A program made the position numbers and the translations under genes. Below the pieces are notes generated by a model. The model saw only the letters and a program-made list of their open reading frames with translations, was not told the origin of the DNA and did no database searches. DNA of 64,000 bases, taken from positions 124,001 to 188,000 of the IMG/VR virus record IMGVR_UViG_3300047323_000304; one strand, 5' to 3'. This DNA is from a virus. Positions 6,767 through 24,437 of this stretch are shown here, piece after piece (positions within the stretch are counted from its first letter, which is position 1; each line of letters begins with the position of its first letter).

Positions 6767-7555
6767 TTACCCAACAATATTTATTGGTATCCAATATTCT
6801 CCTTTCTCTATTAGCCACAAATAACTTATATATCCATCAACTATAATATATTTCTTTCCTCGTTGTTCTACTTCTATCGCTTTTTCTATGCCATTATTTG
6901 CTTTATATTTATTATATTTGTTTAATCTTTTACTCTCTTTGGGTCTACTATTAACCATTACATGTGGGATTATTAACTTATTATATTGAATATACTTCTC
7001 CATATCTATTGGTTGCTTAGTTAATATTTTCCTAGCATCAACATCTTTAGGCTTCTTCCTTTTCTTAGACTTATTATTCATTCCATTTAATTCATTAGTT
7101 AACATTCTAGCTGTTTTTCTTGCTAATTTATCTACAACATTATTATGTATGCTATATTCTGAGGGATTTTTAGAGTTATGAGCTTTTATCCATTTAAGTG
7201 ATATTTTCAATCCTACCGTTTTTATTAAACCAAGAACCTCATCGTATATTTCCCTAACTTTAGCTTTAATCTTTCCTTCAGTTATAAAATCATTTATAAT
7301 ATTTACTACACTTTGACAATCAGATAAAATAATAACTTGTACATCTTCTAAATCATTTTTTAAGTTGTTTAAATGTAATAATAATTGTTTTATAGCTTCA
7401 ATCTCCATTAAATTGCTTGTTGTTTCTATTTGCGTACCACAATTAATATAACTATCCTCATTTATAATTATTTTATAAGCCCATGCACCAACTCCAACTT
7501 TTTTATATTTTTCTTCTTGCAGACAACTTCCATCAGTAAAACATTTGATTTCCAT
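6767..7555 (-). CDS. RNase H fused to a ParB-like C-terminal domain
   Basis: 262 residues. Residues 1-150 are an RNase HI fold with the catalytic set visible: D8 (FTDGS), E51 (NLMEIEAI), D79 (LSDCQS), H126 and D142 (VVDKLA). It would cut the RNA strand of RNA-DNA hybrids, for example plasmid primers. After a basic linker (KSKKRKKPKD) the last ~100 residues end in YIIVDGYISYLWLIEKGE, like the small ParB/Srx-type fold. The fusion is unusual. It is driven by the promoter at 7616-7644. Confidence 0.85.
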   Translation of the reverse strand: MEIKCFTDGSCLQEEKYKKVGVGAWAYKIIINEDSYINCGTQIETTSNLMEIEAIKQLLLHLNNLKNDLEDVQVIILSDCQSVVNIINDFITEGKIKAKVREIYDEVLGLIKTVGLKISLKWIKAHNSKNPSEYSIHNNVVDKLARKTARMLTNELNGMNNKSKKRKKPKDVDARKILTKQPIDMEKYIQYNKLIIPHVMVNSRPKESKRLNKYNKYKANNGIEKAIEVEQRGKKYIIVDGYISYLWLIEKGEYWIPINIVG

Positions 7556-7750: not shown

Positions 7751-7772
7751 AAGGATGACTTTAATCATCCTT
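7751..7772 (-). terminator. Hairpin overlapping the AP2 gene stop
   Basis: 8 bp inverted repeat AAGGATGA/TCATCCTT with the stop codon of the 7761-8471 gene in the loop; the minus-strand tail is TTTTCTT. Moderate terminator. Confidence 0.55.
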
Positions 7773-8471
7773 TAACTTTCTATTTTTCTTGAATTCATTA
7801 TTATACCATTTAAGAAAATTCCCATGTAATTTTAGTTCTGCTTCTTCTCTTGCTTTGGTAGCTTCTTCTTTTGTAAAATGTCTACCTAAATTATAAGTTT
7901 TCTTTTGAAATTGAATGGTAGCCCTATATTTACCTTTTTCAAAAATAACACCTCTAATACCTGTTTTACTATTTTTAAAAGCTTTATTATTATTTATAGT
8001 ATCCATTCTTGTATTAGCAATATATTTATTATTTATAAATTTAGAGATGTTTTTAGGGGCATTTCCTTTTGCAATTTCACTATTTCTACAACCACAACTC
8101 AAGGTATTTCCTGTGGTTAAATTAGTTAAACTTACATATACATCATCTTTACCACAATCACATTTGCATAGCCACATTATATGACCATTATCTCGTTTAC
8201 TAGTAGATTTTATGGCAGTAAGTTTACCAAATTTTTGTCCAGAAATATTTCTTGCTTTTAACTTTCCTATATTGGCTAATTTCTCATCACGCAAACAACC
8301 GCAACTTAAAGTTTGCCCTGCATTAAGTGTGTTACCTGCAACAAAAGTTTCATTTCCACATATACATTTACATTTCCATATAACTGAACCTTGTGATGAT
8401 CTTTTTACTGTTGGTTCAGTAGCAGTTAATTTAGCAAATGTTTTTCCAGTTAAATCTTTAATTCTACCCAA
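7761..8471 (-). CDS. Zinc-finger repeats plus AP2 DNA-binding domain
   Basis: 236 residues. Two repeats of ~65 residues, each with GxxFxKLTA, WxCxCxCG and LSCGC, look like Cys-rich DNA-binding modules. The C-terminus (about 165-225: GIRGVIFEKGKYRA, NLGRHFTKEEA) is an AP2 domain. Such phage proteins accompany or derive from homing endonucleases, but no HNH is visible, so it may act as a DNA-binding protein only. An extended -10 (TGGTATAAT, 8528-8520) lies upstream. Confidence 0.75.
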   Translation of the reverse strand: MGRIKDLTGKTFAKLTATEPTVKRSSQGSVIWKCKCICGNETFVAGNTLNAGQTLSCGCLRDEKLANIGKLKARNISGQKFGKLTAIKSTSKRDNGHIMWLCKCDCGKDDVYVSLTNLTTGNTLSCGCRNSEIAKGNAPKNISKFINNKYIANTRMDTINNNKAFKNSKTGIRGVIFEKGKYRATIQFQKKTYNLGRHFTKEEATKAREEAELKLHGNFLKWYNNEFKKNRKLKDD

Positions 8472-8519
8472 AGTAATACTCCTTATGATAAATAAACTTT
8501 ATTCTTATTGTTAATTGCT

Positions 8520-8528
8520 ATTATACCA
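8520..8528 (-). promoter_or_regulatory. Extended -10 promoter of the AP2 zinc-finger gene
   Basis: TGGTATAAT on the minus strand about 50 bp upstream of the ATG. A TTGTCA lies 22 bp upstream, too far for a normal -35, so the TG extension probably matters. Confidence 0.5.
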
Positions 8529-8577
8529 TATTATTTAATTTTATAAATGACAAAAATTTATTTTGATTAATAAAACC

Positions 8578-8624
8578 TGTGGATAACTTTGATTACATTT
8601 AAAAATTATGTTGACTTATCCACA
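8578..8624. other. Pair of inverted perfect DnaA boxes
   Basis: TGTGGATAA at 8578-8586 and TTATCCACA at 8616-8624, both exact matches to the DnaA-box consensus in opposite orientation, 29 bp apart in AT-rich DNA. Inferred use: host DnaA binding for replication or for control of the neighbouring structured RNA. Confidence 0.65.
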
Positions 8625-8663
8625 ATTTTTCATTAAAATAAATACATAGGAAAAATTCAAAAA

Positions 8664-8880
8664 TAAAAAGTCCTTTCAACACTTATTCAGAATCCCCATT
8701 CTGGACAAGCTAGGAACTTAAATGGTACGTCAATACCAAGAAAGTAACGAAAGAACTTATTTAATATCTTAATTATATATTATAATTTTATCATTGTAAA
8801 TATATAATTTAAGAAACATAAGTAAGATTTTTACAAGCTTTATTGGTATTAAATACTGATAAAGCTTTTTATTTTTTTGT
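8664..8880 (+). ncRNA. Structured RNA segment ending in a strong terminator
   Basis: No ORF. Visible pairings: CAGAAT/ATTCTG closing a CCCC loop (about 8689-8704), enclosed by GTCC/GGAC; GGTA/TACC hairpin (8724-8737). A perfect 9 bp stem AAGCTTTAT/ATAAAGCTT (8835-8843/8859-8867), with a further nested GTATT/AATAC pairing, is followed by a T-rich tail (8868-8879), a good plus-strand terminator. The segment near 8671-8683 is complementary to 9180-9193, so it may also be the 5' arm of the larger RNA downstream. Confidence 0.5.
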
Positions 8881-8894
8881 AAATTTGGGTAAAT

Positions 8895-8924
8895 AAAAAA
8901 AGAAAGTTACTATCAATAACTTTC
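8895..8924 (-). terminator. Rho-independent terminator, minus strand
   Basis: Perfect 8 bp stem GAAAGTTA/TAACTTTC followed on the minus strand by seven T. It would stop minus-strand transcription coming through the 9 kb gene-free region. Confidence 0.7.
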
Positions 8925-9159
8925 CAACATTTAACCTACCTATAAAAAACTTTATATAGAATTATTATTCTTATATACTTCCGTTTAATATAAGTAAAAT
9001 TTATCTCGCAAATTTATTTTACCACAGATTTTTTAAAAATGGAAGTGTTTAGGCTTAATAAAGTCAACCTTTTTTAGAGTAATATTGAGGATTCCCATAT
9101 TTACAGGGATGAGCAGTACAAATATACTTTAATTAATAGATAAATATACAATTATTCTA

Positions 9160-9600
9160 AAATACTAAAGGTGGCTTCAAAGTGTTGAAAAGGCTAATCA
9201 CATTAAAATAACCTGCCGTAAAAGGTGCTACGTCCTCACGCATTGAAAAAAGTATGCAAAGAGCGAGGTATAATTCTATACTTTTTGACTATATACAAGA
9301 AGTATAAATCCCCTGTGTTCATAGTAAGGTGAAACTCCGTACAGGGTTATCAAAAATGTGAGGCGATAAGAATGACCAACTCTTATCATTTTGGAAGTCC
9401 TAACGTAGAAATACGTGGCAATATCATAGTAATACTTTTATAGTAGTTGTGTTAGGGTAGGAATGACATAATTAAAACTATGATTCTTATATAGATGTGA
9501 AGATACAATTCCCGAAAACAAAGCATAATATTCACATAATATCTCTTATTGCTTCTCAGCATTAAGGGGTTTTATGTTCAAACGTGTCCACCCTCCTCAA
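9160..9600 (+). ncRNA. Large structured RNA candidate
   Basis: About 440 nt with no ORF and clearly higher GC than its surroundings. Plus-strand pairings found by eye: GGTGG 9170-9174 with CCACC 9588-9592 (closing helix); CCTCAC 9234-9239 with GTGAGG 9358-9363; AAAAAGTAT 9247-9255 with ATACTTTTT 9278-9286; TATAC/GTATA 9292-9306; CCCTGT/ACAGGG 9311-9346; GATAAGA/TCTTATC 9365-9387; CCTAAC/GTTAGG 9399-9456 enclosing ACGTA-GAAA-TACGT (9403-9416), a GNRA tetraloop hairpin; CATA/TATG with GAAT/ATTC 9461-9486; AAGCA/TGCTT 9521-9554. Purine-rich loops and the GNRA loop favour the plus strand. Size, stand-alone position and phage/plasmid context recall ROOL/GOLLD-type RNAs, but I could not assign a class. 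Confidence 0.6.
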
Positions 9601-9663
9601 AGCATATCCTTTGGCATATATCAAAGTCAAGTAGTAAATTCAATTAAGTATGCAAGTTTGATT

Positions 9664-9711
9664 ATAACTAGAGTGATAACTCAAAGTAAGCAATACACTC
9701 TAGTTATAATA
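9664..9711. terminator. Long hairpin at RNA/gene boundary
   Basis: Perfect 12 bp repeat ATAACTAGAGTG/CACTCTAGTTAT just after the stop of the 9717-10019 gene. U-tracts are weak on both sides; it could end the plus-strand RNA, the minus-strand gene, or both. Confidence 0.5.
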
Positions 9712-9716
9712 TTTAA

Positions 9717-10019
9717 TTAGGATATCTTAGCAGAAACTTCAACATTTAAATTATATTTATTGATTAAATATTTAGCACATTCTAAATCAGTTTCAAATAC
9801 TTCAAAATCATTACCATCTGAACTACATTCTTTAGTTTTTGGATTTCTATAATCATATCCTGCTATACCATCATTATCAATATAATAAAAAGTTTCATAT
9901 TCTGCATTTTCTTTTTCACAAATGTTTTCTTCTAAATCTTGATACACAATCCTTGTCACATCATAAATTTTGTTTTTAGTTACACCTTGTACCATTTCAT
10001 TTAATATTAATATTTTCAT
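9717..10019 (-). CDS. Hypothetical protein, 100 aa
   Basis: Start taken at the ATG 10019-10017 (MKILILNEMVQGVTKNKIYD), because GGAGGAGAG sits upstream of it and inside the longer frame. N-terminus resembles small phage proteins of the KxKxYxV type; the middle has YYIDNDG. No function assigned. Driven by the promoter at 10071-10099. Confidence 0.7.
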   Translation of the reverse strand: MKILILNEMVQGVTKNKIYDVTRIVYQDLEENICEKENAEYETFYYIDNDGIAGYDYRNPKTKECSSDGNDFEVFETDLECAKYLINKYNLNVEVSAKIS

Positions 10020-11248: not shown

Positions 11249-12055
11249 TTATGCAAATCTTCTTCTTCCTTGATTTCCTACTTTATAATAATTCCCATCA
11301 TTATAACTTATTATAACGTTTCTAACTTTACTAGTGTAAAAATCTACTAATTGTCCACAACATTGTTCTAAATCACCTTTTTCCATCAATGCTATTTCTT
11401 TTGGAGCATTCTTAGCTCTTTCTCTTATATACTCACTATCATAAAAATCAGAAACATATAATTTTAAAAATGCTCTAACAAATGCTTGACTTCTAAAGTT
11501 TTCATTTTCCTTAAATAAGTATAAATCATGTAAAAAATTTATTATTTCCAATTCATTTTCTATATTCAATTTTCCTTGTTTAAATAATTTTAATCTTCCT
11601 GATTGTCCTAATTGCTCTTTTGATAATTCATCCATTACTACAATCAAATCACTAATATTTAATTTATATTTTTTTATCATATTATTTAATGTTACATACA
11701 TTGGTAATTGTCTACTAACACCAGATGATAAATAATCCTCTAGTTTCCAAGTATTAGCCTCACTATTCATTAAAAGCATTTCGTTAAATCCTGCTCCTTC
11801 TTGTATGTAATATCTAATAGGTTTACCAGAAGCTTTCCATGCTGAAAATCTATGTTGTCCGTCTATTATTTCACCTTTTTCATTTATCATAATCATTGGT
11901 AACATTTCATTCCCTGATAATATGTAATTAATTATTTCTTGAACATGACATAAATCTATTGGTCTATTTCCCTCTATTAATTTGAAATTTTCATAATCTG
12001 TTGAATAACAATTTACACCTAATACTCCATCACATCTAATAACTTTATTTTCCAT
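11249..12055 (-). CDS. ParB-like nuclease-fold protein (DGQHR motif)
   Basis: 268 residues. The N-terminal ParB/sulfiredoxin fold is clear: NRPIDLCHVQEII (30-42), LPMIMINEKGEIIDGQHRF (52-70) with the signature DGQHR at 65-69. The C-terminal ~180 residues are helical, as in phage ParB-like proteins. Relatives bind DNA or act as nucleotide-dependent switches or nucleases; no partner ParA is in the window, so a role in segregation is not supported. The ATG is 1 bp from the stop of the upstream zinc-ribbon gene. Confidence 0.8.
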   Translation of the reverse strand: MENKVIRCDGVLGVNCYSTDYENFKLIEGNRPIDLCHVQEIINYILSGNEMLPMIMINEKGEIIDGQHRFSAWKASGKPIRYYIQEGAGFNEMLLMNSEANTWKLEDYLSSGVSRQLPMYVTLNNMIKKYKLNISDLIVVMDELSKEQLGQSGRLKLFKQGKLNIENELEIINFLHDLYLFKENENFRSQAFVRAFLKLYVSDFYDSEYIRERAKNAPKEIALMEKGDLEQCCGQLVDFYTSKVRNVIISYNDGNYYKVGNQGRRRFA

Positions 12056-18939: not shown

Positions 18940-19713
18940 TTACATAGCTATTTTTTCCTCTTTCTTTTCATACATTTTATAGTAATCTCTATAATTTAAT
19001 TTATTATCTTCACAAAACTTTTGTAGTGACCATAAAAACGCTTCTCTTTGTTCAAGTAGATTCTTTATTAAACTTTTATTTTTTGCTTTACTTAAAGCCT
19101 TTTCGTATGTGTATATATCATCTAGTATTTCCTCTATATTATCTTGCATATATTTTGGTAATCTCTCTAATGGAGTCTTTGGTTTTAATCTACCATTTTG
19201 TATTCTAATTGCTTGCTCAACTTGCTCCATTATATCCTCAGTCACAGTACCTATTTTATATTTAAATTGTGTTTTTTTATCTATTGGACATAACGTTTCT
19301 GCTAAAATAACTGATTTTTTCTTTAATCCACATTCTTCAAAATTATCTATTTCCACATGTATAGGTAACTTTGATTTACCTAATTGAGACGTAATTGCAC
19401 ATCCACTAATATTTGGACTATATCGGTTGTTTAATTCGTTCGAGGTAACTAAAAAAGGTCTAATTCCACCCTGAATAGAATGTCTTCCTGCTCCCAAATC
19501 AACTTGCCATATTTCATATTGTTTTATTTCTAAAGGTCTATTTACACTTTCCTTATAATTTATTTCCATAGTAACTTGAACTTTATCATTTTCAAGTTTA
19601 TTACTATGTACATTAATTGTCATCTTATCGTTATTTAATTTATTATCCACTTTAACCTCTTGTTCTTTTAACATTTGTAAAGCGTTCATACTTTTTTCAT
19701 TTAAATCTAACAC
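18940..19713 (-). CDS. MazF/PemK-type endoribonuclease with long extensions
   Basis: 257 residues against ~110 for plain MazF. Residues ~80-190 match the PemK/MazF fold: YEIWQVDLG, GIRPFLVTSNELNN, GCAITSQLG, LPIHVEI, ILAETLCPIDKK. The family cuts mRNA at short motifs. A ~78-residue N-terminal part and a ~65-residue helical C-terminus are added. No classical small antitoxin precedes it; the N-terminal part or the downstream 213-residue protein might restrain it. Two promoters lie upstream (19774-19802 and 19862-19890). Confidence 0.8.
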   Translation of the reverse strand: MLDLNEKSMNALQMLKEQEVKVDNKLNNDKMTINVHSNKLENDKVQVTMEINYKESVNRPLEIKQYEIWQVDLGAGRHSIQGGIRPFLVTSNELNNRYSPNISGCAITSQLGKSKLPIHVEIDNFEECGLKKKSVILAETLCPIDKKTQFKYKIGTVTEDIMEQVEQAIRIQNGRLKPKTPLERLPKYMQDNIEEILDDIYTYEKALSKAKNKSLIKNLLEQREAFLWSLQKFCEDNKLNYRDYYKMYEKKEEKIAM

Positions 19714-24174: not shown

Positions 24175-24247
24175 GTATTAAAAAAAGAAATGAATGATTC
24201 TTAAAATTACAAAAATAAAGGATTATTCATTTCTTTTTTTAATACTT
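24174..24247. terminator. Strong bidirectional terminator
   Basis: A perfect 22 bp inverted repeat with A7 on the left arm (24180-24186) and T7 on the right arm (24234-24240), separated by 29 bases. It divides the plus-strand HTH unit from the minus-strand genes. Confidence 0.85.
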
Positions 24248-24272
24248 TAAAATATTCATTTGATTAGAATTA

Positions 24273-24437
24273 TTATTTCTCGTACAAATCACTAATATAA
24301 GCATTAACTAATCCTGTTCTATCTTCGTTCACCCTTATAATCGCTACATCTCCAAATCCCACTATATGTTCTACCTTGCCTTGAATCTCATTCCCTTTAA
24401 AATCCACACCTTGAACTAGGCTATCTTCTCGTATCAT
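24273..24437 (-). CDS. Small beta-rich protein, 54 aa
   Basis: MIREDSLVQGVDFKGNEIQG with alternating polar/hydrophobic pattern, probably a small beta barrel. GAGGTGTTTTTA is the ribosome site. Last gene before the two-way terminator. Function unknown. Confidence 0.6.
   Translation of the reverse strand: MIREDSLVQGVDFKGNEIQGKVEHIVGFGDVAIIRVNEDRTGLVNAYISDLYEK

What the first reader, a model, noticed from the sequence alone, without database searches (positions are those of the whole stretch)
8660..9711. Large structured RNA in a gene-free kilobase
Seen: about 440 nt (9160-9600) hold at least nine separate helices that can coexist, one capped by a GAAA tetraloop, closed by GGTGG/CCACC. CCTTTCAACACTT at 8671-8683 is complementary to AAGTGTTGAAAAGG at 9180-9193 apart from one bulge, so the RNA may begin near 8660 and reach ~1 kb. 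GC content is raised only here. Known: ROOL and GOLLD RNAs are large, stand-alone and live in phages and plasmids. Inference: this is such an RNA or a new class.
Basis: partly seen in the sequence, partly recalled or inferred. Interest (0 to 1): 0.8.

Follow-up and report, generated by a model that had tools for sequence, protein, structure and literature searches.

The report
Two structured RNAs beside phage origin
A gene-free kilobase of a large bacterial virus probably makes two folded RNAs, of about 230 and 580 bases, that match no known RNA family and lie beside what looks like a DnaA-type replication origin; with no relatives found, the fold rests on one sequence and the function is inferred.

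Summary
The structured region is real on the + strand, but the 1-kb single-RNA reading is not supported. Window 9165-9600 folds better than its shuffles (z -3.0 to -3.7; 0/100 and 0/120 as stable; other strand -1.4), has a lower energy than any of 120 random windows of the phage, and a G+C in the top 0.3% of the contig. The proposed long-range pairing 8671-8683/9180-9193 is no better than chance (106/200 shuffles), and a strong terminator-like hairpin at 8835-8876 lies between. The stretch reads best as two units: RNA1, about 8650-8880 (z -6.7), and RNA2, about 9135-9715. Rfam (ROOL, GOLLD, ARRPOF, HEARO, introns included) gives no credible match; the contig has no tRNA or reverse transcriptase gene. 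No homologue was found in phage or plasmid records, in related phages, or by exact motif scans, so covariation is untested. New here: RNA1 starts beside the contig's only close pair of perfect DnaA boxes (8578-8586, 8616-8624), and a distant relative has the same boxes near a different 1.25-kb Rfam-negative structured stretch. Best reading: origin-linked RNAs of a phage-plasmid, class unknown. RNA well supported; role inferred.

The parts
8578..8586 (-). Perfect DnaA box (TGTGGATAA), left member of an inverted pair
   Evidence: the only two perfect boxes within 60 bp of each other in the contig, none in 60 Markov genomes
8616..8624 (+). Perfect DnaA box (TTATCCACA), right member; lies in the -35/-10 spacer of the RNA1 promoter-like site
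8611..8639 (+). Promoter-like site of RNA1 (TTGACT, 17, TAAAAT)
   Evidence: 10 of 12 consensus bases, but promoter-like sites as a class are no more frequent here than in shuffles
8650..8880 (+). RNA1, predicted structured transcript of about 230 nt; ends approximate
   Evidence: z -6.67, 0/200; without the terminator hairpin z -4.46 on + and -3.01 on -
8756..8826 (.). Very AT-rich palindromic stretch inside RNA1, unwinding-element-like
   Evidence: 60-nt window of 93% A+T, top 0.04% of the contig
8835..8876 (+). Terminator-like hairpin with T-rich tail, end of RNA1
   Evidence: 15 pairs; 3 such sites found in the scanned 4.3 kb, 0.9 expected
9100..9128 (+). Promoter-like site of RNA2 (TTTACA, 17, TATACT)
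   Evidence: weak evidence, as above
9135..9715 (+). RNA2, predicted large structured RNA; ends approximate, folded core 9170-9592
9170..9174 (+). 5' strand of the closing helix GGUGG (pairs with CCACC 9588-9592)
   Evidence: mean pairing probability 0.81
9193..9364 (+). Domain A of RNA2: helix GCU..UCACAUU/AAUGUGA-GGC enclosing four hairpins
   Evidence: MFE, MEA and centroid identical for this domain
9365..9387 (+). Hairpin GAUAAGA/UCUUAUC
   Evidence: probability 0.99
9389..9517 (+). Domain B of RNA2 with the GAAA hairpin (9403-9416); outer pairing less certain
   Evidence: GAAA stem probability 0.96, other helices 0.5-0.8
9523..9587 (+). Domain C of RNA2: long interrupted hairpin
   Evidence: main stems 0.93-0.98, base 0.53
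9588..9592 (+). 3' strand of the closing helix, CCACC
9661..9710 (+). Perfect 15-bp inverted repeat, possible end of RNA2
   Evidence: not reported by the terminator scan, so termination here is inference
6767..7555 (-). Neighbouring RNase H gene
   Evidence: Pfam PF00075, E 3.9e-15
11249..12055 (-). Neighbouring ParB-like gene
   Evidence: phrog_12305, E 2.4e-29; no Pfam or PDB support

Best explanation
The kilobase is an origin or maintenance control region of a phage that probably also lives as a plasmid. It encodes two + strand noncoding RNAs: RNA1 (about 8650-8880) and RNA2 (about 9135-9715), the latter a large multi-domain RNA closed by GGUGG/CCACC. DnaA bound at the paired boxes would help open the AT-rich stretch and, because one box lies inside the RNA1 promoter-like site, couple RNA1 transcription to initiation; RNA2 would act as a folded RNA in setting plasmid-state replication or copy number, directly or through a protein. 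Shown: the sequence elements and the fold-stability signal. Inferred: transcription, origin activity, that the two RNAs are separate, and any functional link between RNA and replication.
For: Fold stability, strand bias, raised G+C and no coding. Only close pair of perfect DnaA boxes in the contig, immediately upstream of RNA1; extreme AT-rich stretch; RNase H and ParB-like genes near by. Distant relative G003 has its only close DnaA-box pair, its most AT-rich window, its cumulative skew minimum and a switch of gene direction together at about 118 kb, with a 1.25-kb Rfam-negative structured stretch about 1.5 kb on.
Against: The cumulative GC-skew minimum of this contig is at 175 kb, not at 132.6 kb where the site lies. 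No initiator gene was recognised beside it. The DnaA-box pair could be an operator. No homologue, no covariation, no transcript data. RNA2 and the G003 stretch show no significant sequence similarity.
Confidence: 0.38

Rival explanations
1. RNA2 is a stand-alone ornate phage RNA unrelated to replication that works like ROOL or GOLLD: abundant during infection and perhaps self-assembling through loop contacts. Its place beside DnaA boxes is coincidence.
For: Size, multi-branched fold, phage host and lack of a coding partner fit that kind (PMC12286853).
Against: No ROOL or GOLLD match; no tRNA in the contig. Self-assembly cannot be read from the sequence.
Confidence: 0.3
2. There is no functional large RNA: the stretch is a DNA-level origin or operator region with palindromes, and the fold signal of RNA2 is a composition patch or the remains of a decayed gene.
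For: AT-rich palindromes fold on both strands (RNA1 z -3.01 on the - strand). 3 of 120 random windows reach z -2.97. Promoter-like sites are at chance frequency. No homologue with conserved structure.
Against: RNA2 is the lowest-energy window of 121, is better on + than on -, keeps the same fold across methods and has a skew opposite to the flanking genes.
Confidence: 0.2
3. It is one RNA of about 1 kb from 8660 to 9711.
For: A 16-nt complementarity with 88% matches joins the two ends.
Against: That complementarity is at chance level (106/200 shuffles), and a strong terminator-like hairpin lies between.
Confidence: 0.05
4. It is an intron or a guide RNA of a mobile element (group I or II, HEARO, TnpB or IscB type).
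For: The contig holds a TnpB-like gene (43491-44711) and HNH-family genes, one at 7761-8471; a HEARO RNA occurs in the related C. difficile phage.
Against: No Rfam intron or HEARO match up to E 10, no reverse transcriptase in the contig, no split gene at the flanks, TnpB-like gene 34 kb away.
Confidence: 0.06

Closest known systems
ROOL RNA (RF03087)
   Same: Large multi-branched RNA of about 580 nt in a phage, apparently noncoding and stand-alone
   Different: No covariance-model match at E<=10, no tRNA genes near; ROOL is often near tRNA islands (PMC12286853)
GOLLD RNA (RF02032)
   Same: Large phage RNA; GOLLD also has a conserved GAAA loop (PMC12286853)
   Different: No match at the site; single 9.2-bit match elsewhere against a cut-off of 150; shorter than most GOLLD RNAs
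ARRPOF RNA (RF02933)
   Same: Structured RNA named for a region required for plasmid replication (PMC12641628), the position proposed here
   Different: No match at the site; ARRPOF model is 256 positions, RNA2 about 580 nt
ColE1-type RNA II / RNA I control (from general knowledge)
   Same: A longer and a shorter structured RNA near an origin, with an RNase H gene near by
   Different: RNA1 is on the same strand and does not overlap RNA2, so it is not its antisense; the complementarity between them is at chance; DnaA boxes lie upstream of both

Membership tests
ROOL (RF03087) | Match to the covariance model | tested here: not met
   No match at E<=10 in the contig, none in cmscan; caveat: no control genome rang
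ROOL (RF03087) | Often near tRNA islands (a usual, not a strict, feature) | tested here: not met
   ARAGORN finds no tRNA in the contig
ROOL / GOLLD | Homo-oligomeric RNA assembly | not testable with these tools
   Needs mass photometry or cryo-EM
GOLLD (RF02032) | Match to the covariance model of the conserved 3' part | tested here: not met
   Only 9.2 bits at another place, cut-off 150
ARRPOF (RF02933) | Match to the covariance model | tested here: not met
   Two weak matches elsewhere in the contig, best 12.6 bits, cut-off 127.2
HEARO, group I and group II introns, RNase P, tmRNA (Rfam) | Match to the covariance models | tested here: not met
   cmscan of 8550-9760, both strands, E<=10: none of these
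Group II intron or retron | Reverse transcriptase in the same element | tested here: not met
   PF00078 absent from the contig, controls rang; ORF-less introns exist, so this alone does not exclude one
New structured RNA class | Covarying base pairs in homologues | tested here: inconclusive
   No homologue found; L084 shares one hairpin module only
DnaA-dependent origin | Cluster of DnaA boxes | tested here: met
   Inverted pair of perfect boxes 38 bp apart, only close pair in the contig
DnaA-dependent origin | AT-rich unwinding stretch beside the boxes | tested here: met
   93% A+T over 60 nt, top 0.04% of windows
DnaA-dependent origin | Cumulative GC-skew minimum at the site | tested here: not met
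   Minimum at 175 kb of the contig, site at 132.6 kb; a second, plasmid-state origin would not need it, but this counts against
DnaA-dependent plasmid origin | Initiator gene beside the origin | tested here: inconclusive
   No initiator recognised among neighbouring proteins, several of which match no family
ColE1-type RNA II / RNA I | Short RNA antisense to the long one | tested here: not met
   RNA1 and RNA2 are on the same strand and do not overlap; trans complementarity at chance

The most novel reading that the evidence does not exclude
Large phage-plasmids of this group carry a new kind of origin-linked giant RNA, unrelated in sequence between phages (about 580 nt here, about 1.25 kb in G003) but placed beside the DnaA-box origin, where the folded RNA takes part in initiation or copy control.
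Probability: 0.12. Interest if true: 0.85.

Novelty: new variant of a known kind. Interest (0 to 1): 0.5.

Why it matters
Large structured phage RNAs such as ROOL and GOLLD have no known function. A further candidate that lies beside a recognisable origin would give a concrete, testable role (replication or copy control) for at least one such RNA, and the group of phages found here offers several unannotated candidates to compare.

Tried and rejected
Exact motif scans of IMG/VR: GTGAAACTCCGTACAG hit only an unrelated contig, read as levivirus coding sequence from the letters. CCTGCCGTAAAAGGTG gave 12 hits with no similarity beyond the motif. GTCCTAANNNNGAAANNNNTGGCAA gave two hits: one looks like coding sequence with a ribosome-binding site, the other is L084, a noncoding folded stretch sharing the hairpin module with an A-U to U-A swap in the stem; its flanks are no more alike than shuffles (p 0.27-0.98), so it is kept as a lead only. 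A follow-up pattern gave no further likely relative. A 21-mer in GTDB: none. The FtsK-like protein in GTDB: none. blastn, nhmmer and a single-sequence covariance model of domain A in related contigs: nothing. The string GGTGAAANTCCGT shared by RNA2 and the G003 stretch is compatible with chance. Duplex-energy shuffling was uninformative because the program bridged large loops. Two scripts timed out; one search had printed its first line, which is used. The neighbouring orphan gene found no relative. A second gap with a strong fold score (G000 18986-19424) was read and looks like small genes and a long hairpin, not a relative.

Full report
What was checked. The window is bases 124001-188000 of a 193,897-base IMG/VR virus contig. 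Its genes mark it as a large tailed phage: terminase, portal, tail proteins, DNA polymerase, topoisomerase, DnaB-like helicase, with integrases, a ParB-like protein and an anti-repressor. Its closest named relative by one 683-aa protein is a Clostridioides phage, pCD1602_4 (64% identity).

The observation. The stretch 8515-9716 has no ORF above 48 codons. The 436 nt at 9165-9600 fold at -104.4 kcal/mol on the + strand, with z -3.7 (0/100) and, with another shuffle set, -3.0 (0/120); the other strand gives -1.4. Against 120 random windows of the same phage its energy is the lowest, although 3 of the 120 reach z -2.97 or lower. Its G+C (0.349) is reached by 0.3% of windows. GC skew is clearly negative through most of the flanking - strand genes and turns slightly positive here, which fits a + strand transcript. 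The predicted fold is stable across methods: a closing helix GGUGG/CCACC, a junction domain with four hairpins (9193-9364), a hairpin at 9365-9387, a less certain domain with the GAAA hairpin (9389-9517), and a long hairpin (9523-9587).

What does not hold. Between the two arms lies a 15-pair hairpin with a T-rich tail (8835-8876), and a promoter-like site stands at 9100-9128. The upstream stretch is a unit of its own: RNA1, 8650-8880, z -6.67; without the terminator hairpin z is -4.46 on + and -3.01 on -, so part of the signal is an AT-rich palindrome that shows on either strand. Promoter-like sites here are as frequent as in shuffled sequence, so the transcript starts are only suggestions.

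Known families. Rfam at gathering scores finds nothing in the window or in bases 1-130000 of the contig, and at E up to 10 only chance-level matches in the region. Whole-contig searches with GOLLD, ROOL and ARRPOF give no match at RNA2; in the ROOL search no control rang, so that negative is weaker. There is no tRNA and no reverse transcriptase gene.

Homologues. None was found: blastn in 50,697 phage and 72,556 plasmid records; blastn, nhmmer or a single-sequence covariance model in related contigs; exact motif scans. One IMG/VR locus, L084, shares a 26-nt hairpin module with ours and sits in a noncoding, folded stretch (z -2.79); outside the module there is no significant similarity. It is a lead, not a homologue. 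Covariation is therefore untested, and the fold rests on the thermodynamics of one sequence.

Surroundings. Upstream of RNA1 is an inverted pair of perfect DnaA boxes, 8578-8586 and 8616-8624. The contig has six perfect boxes (about 2.2 to 2.7 expected); this is the only close pair, and 60 Markov genomes gave none. The right box lies in the spacer of the RNA1 promoter-like site. RNA1 spans a stretch that reaches 93% A+T over 60 nt, in the top 0.04% of the contig. An RNase H gene lies about 1 kb upstream of the boxes and a ParB-like gene about 1.5 kb beyond RNA2. Against this, the cumulative GC-skew minimum of the contig is at 175 kb, no initiator gene was recognised, and the pair could be an operator.

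A parallel. In the related 152-kb contig G003 (DNA polymerase 53% identical), the only close inverted DnaA-box pair (118606, 118632) coincides to within about 1 kb with the cumulative GC-skew minimum and the most AT-rich 60-nt window, and lies in the segment where gene direction switches. At 120.15-121.39 kb stands a 1.25-kb stretch of G+C 0.50 in a genome of 0.37, with no Rfam match up to E 5 except one chance-level human lncRNA hit, z -3.18 over 991 nt (0/20), ending in a terminator-like hairpin. It has no significant sequence similarity to RNA2. In relative G001 a DnaA box stands among short repeats before a 396-codon ORF; that ORF was not put through a family search.

Conclusion. That RNA2 is a real structured RNA: about 0.75 (my estimate). 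That it and RNA1 belong to an origin or maintenance region and act there: about 0.38. The mechanism (DnaA-coupled RNA1, RNA2 in initiation or copy control) is inference from position.

Noticed in passing
L045:150-1390 (contig G003, 120150-121390): Gene-free 1.25-kb stretch, G+C 0.50 against 0.37 for the contig, z -3.18 over 991 nt on +, Rfam-negative, about 1.5 kb from a DnaA-box pair; no blastn match in phage or plasmid records. A candidate giant RNA in its own right.
   Followed up: partly
L052:6831-7459 (contig G001, 26831-27459): A skipping-rope RNA (RF02924), then a gene-free stretch of about 430 nt with raised G+C and a stable predicted fold (z -2.1), directly upstream of a tRNA gene. 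The stretch itself matches no Rfam family.
   Followed up: partly
L084:7545-7810, - strand: Noncoding folded stretch upstream of a 157-codon ORF that shares GUCCUAACGU-N-GAAA-N-ACGUGGCAAU with window 9397-9422.
   Followed up: partly
L051, contig G001 about 10.9-12.5 kb: Short repeats of the type CAGAGTAAATTGGGA around a DnaA box, before a 396-codon ORF: looks like an iteron plasmid origin.
   Followed up: no
L036:14835-16432 and L035:21792-21910 (Clostridioides phage pCD1602_4): A HEARO RNA followed by a 450-codon HNH-type ORF and then a short ORF resembling an IS200-type transposase, and elsewhere a Fusobacteriales-1 RNA (gene readings from the letters, not searched).
   Followed up: no
L022 and L024: The DNA polymerase match is about 1.2 kb longer in these two contigs than in the others, as if an intein or intron were inserted.
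   Followed up: no
window 24175-24375: 200-nt intergenic window with the most extreme fold score of the contig's long gaps (z -7.3, + strand).
   Followed up: no
L013:18986-19424 (G000): Gene-poor stretch with z about -5 to -6 and a 27-nt inverted repeat at 19259-19327; possibly a small gene module with a long terminator.
   Followed up: partly
window 7761-8471, - strand: 236-aa protein with three stretches alike to an HNH endonuclease family (phrog_374) but no Pfam HNH match.
   Followed up: no
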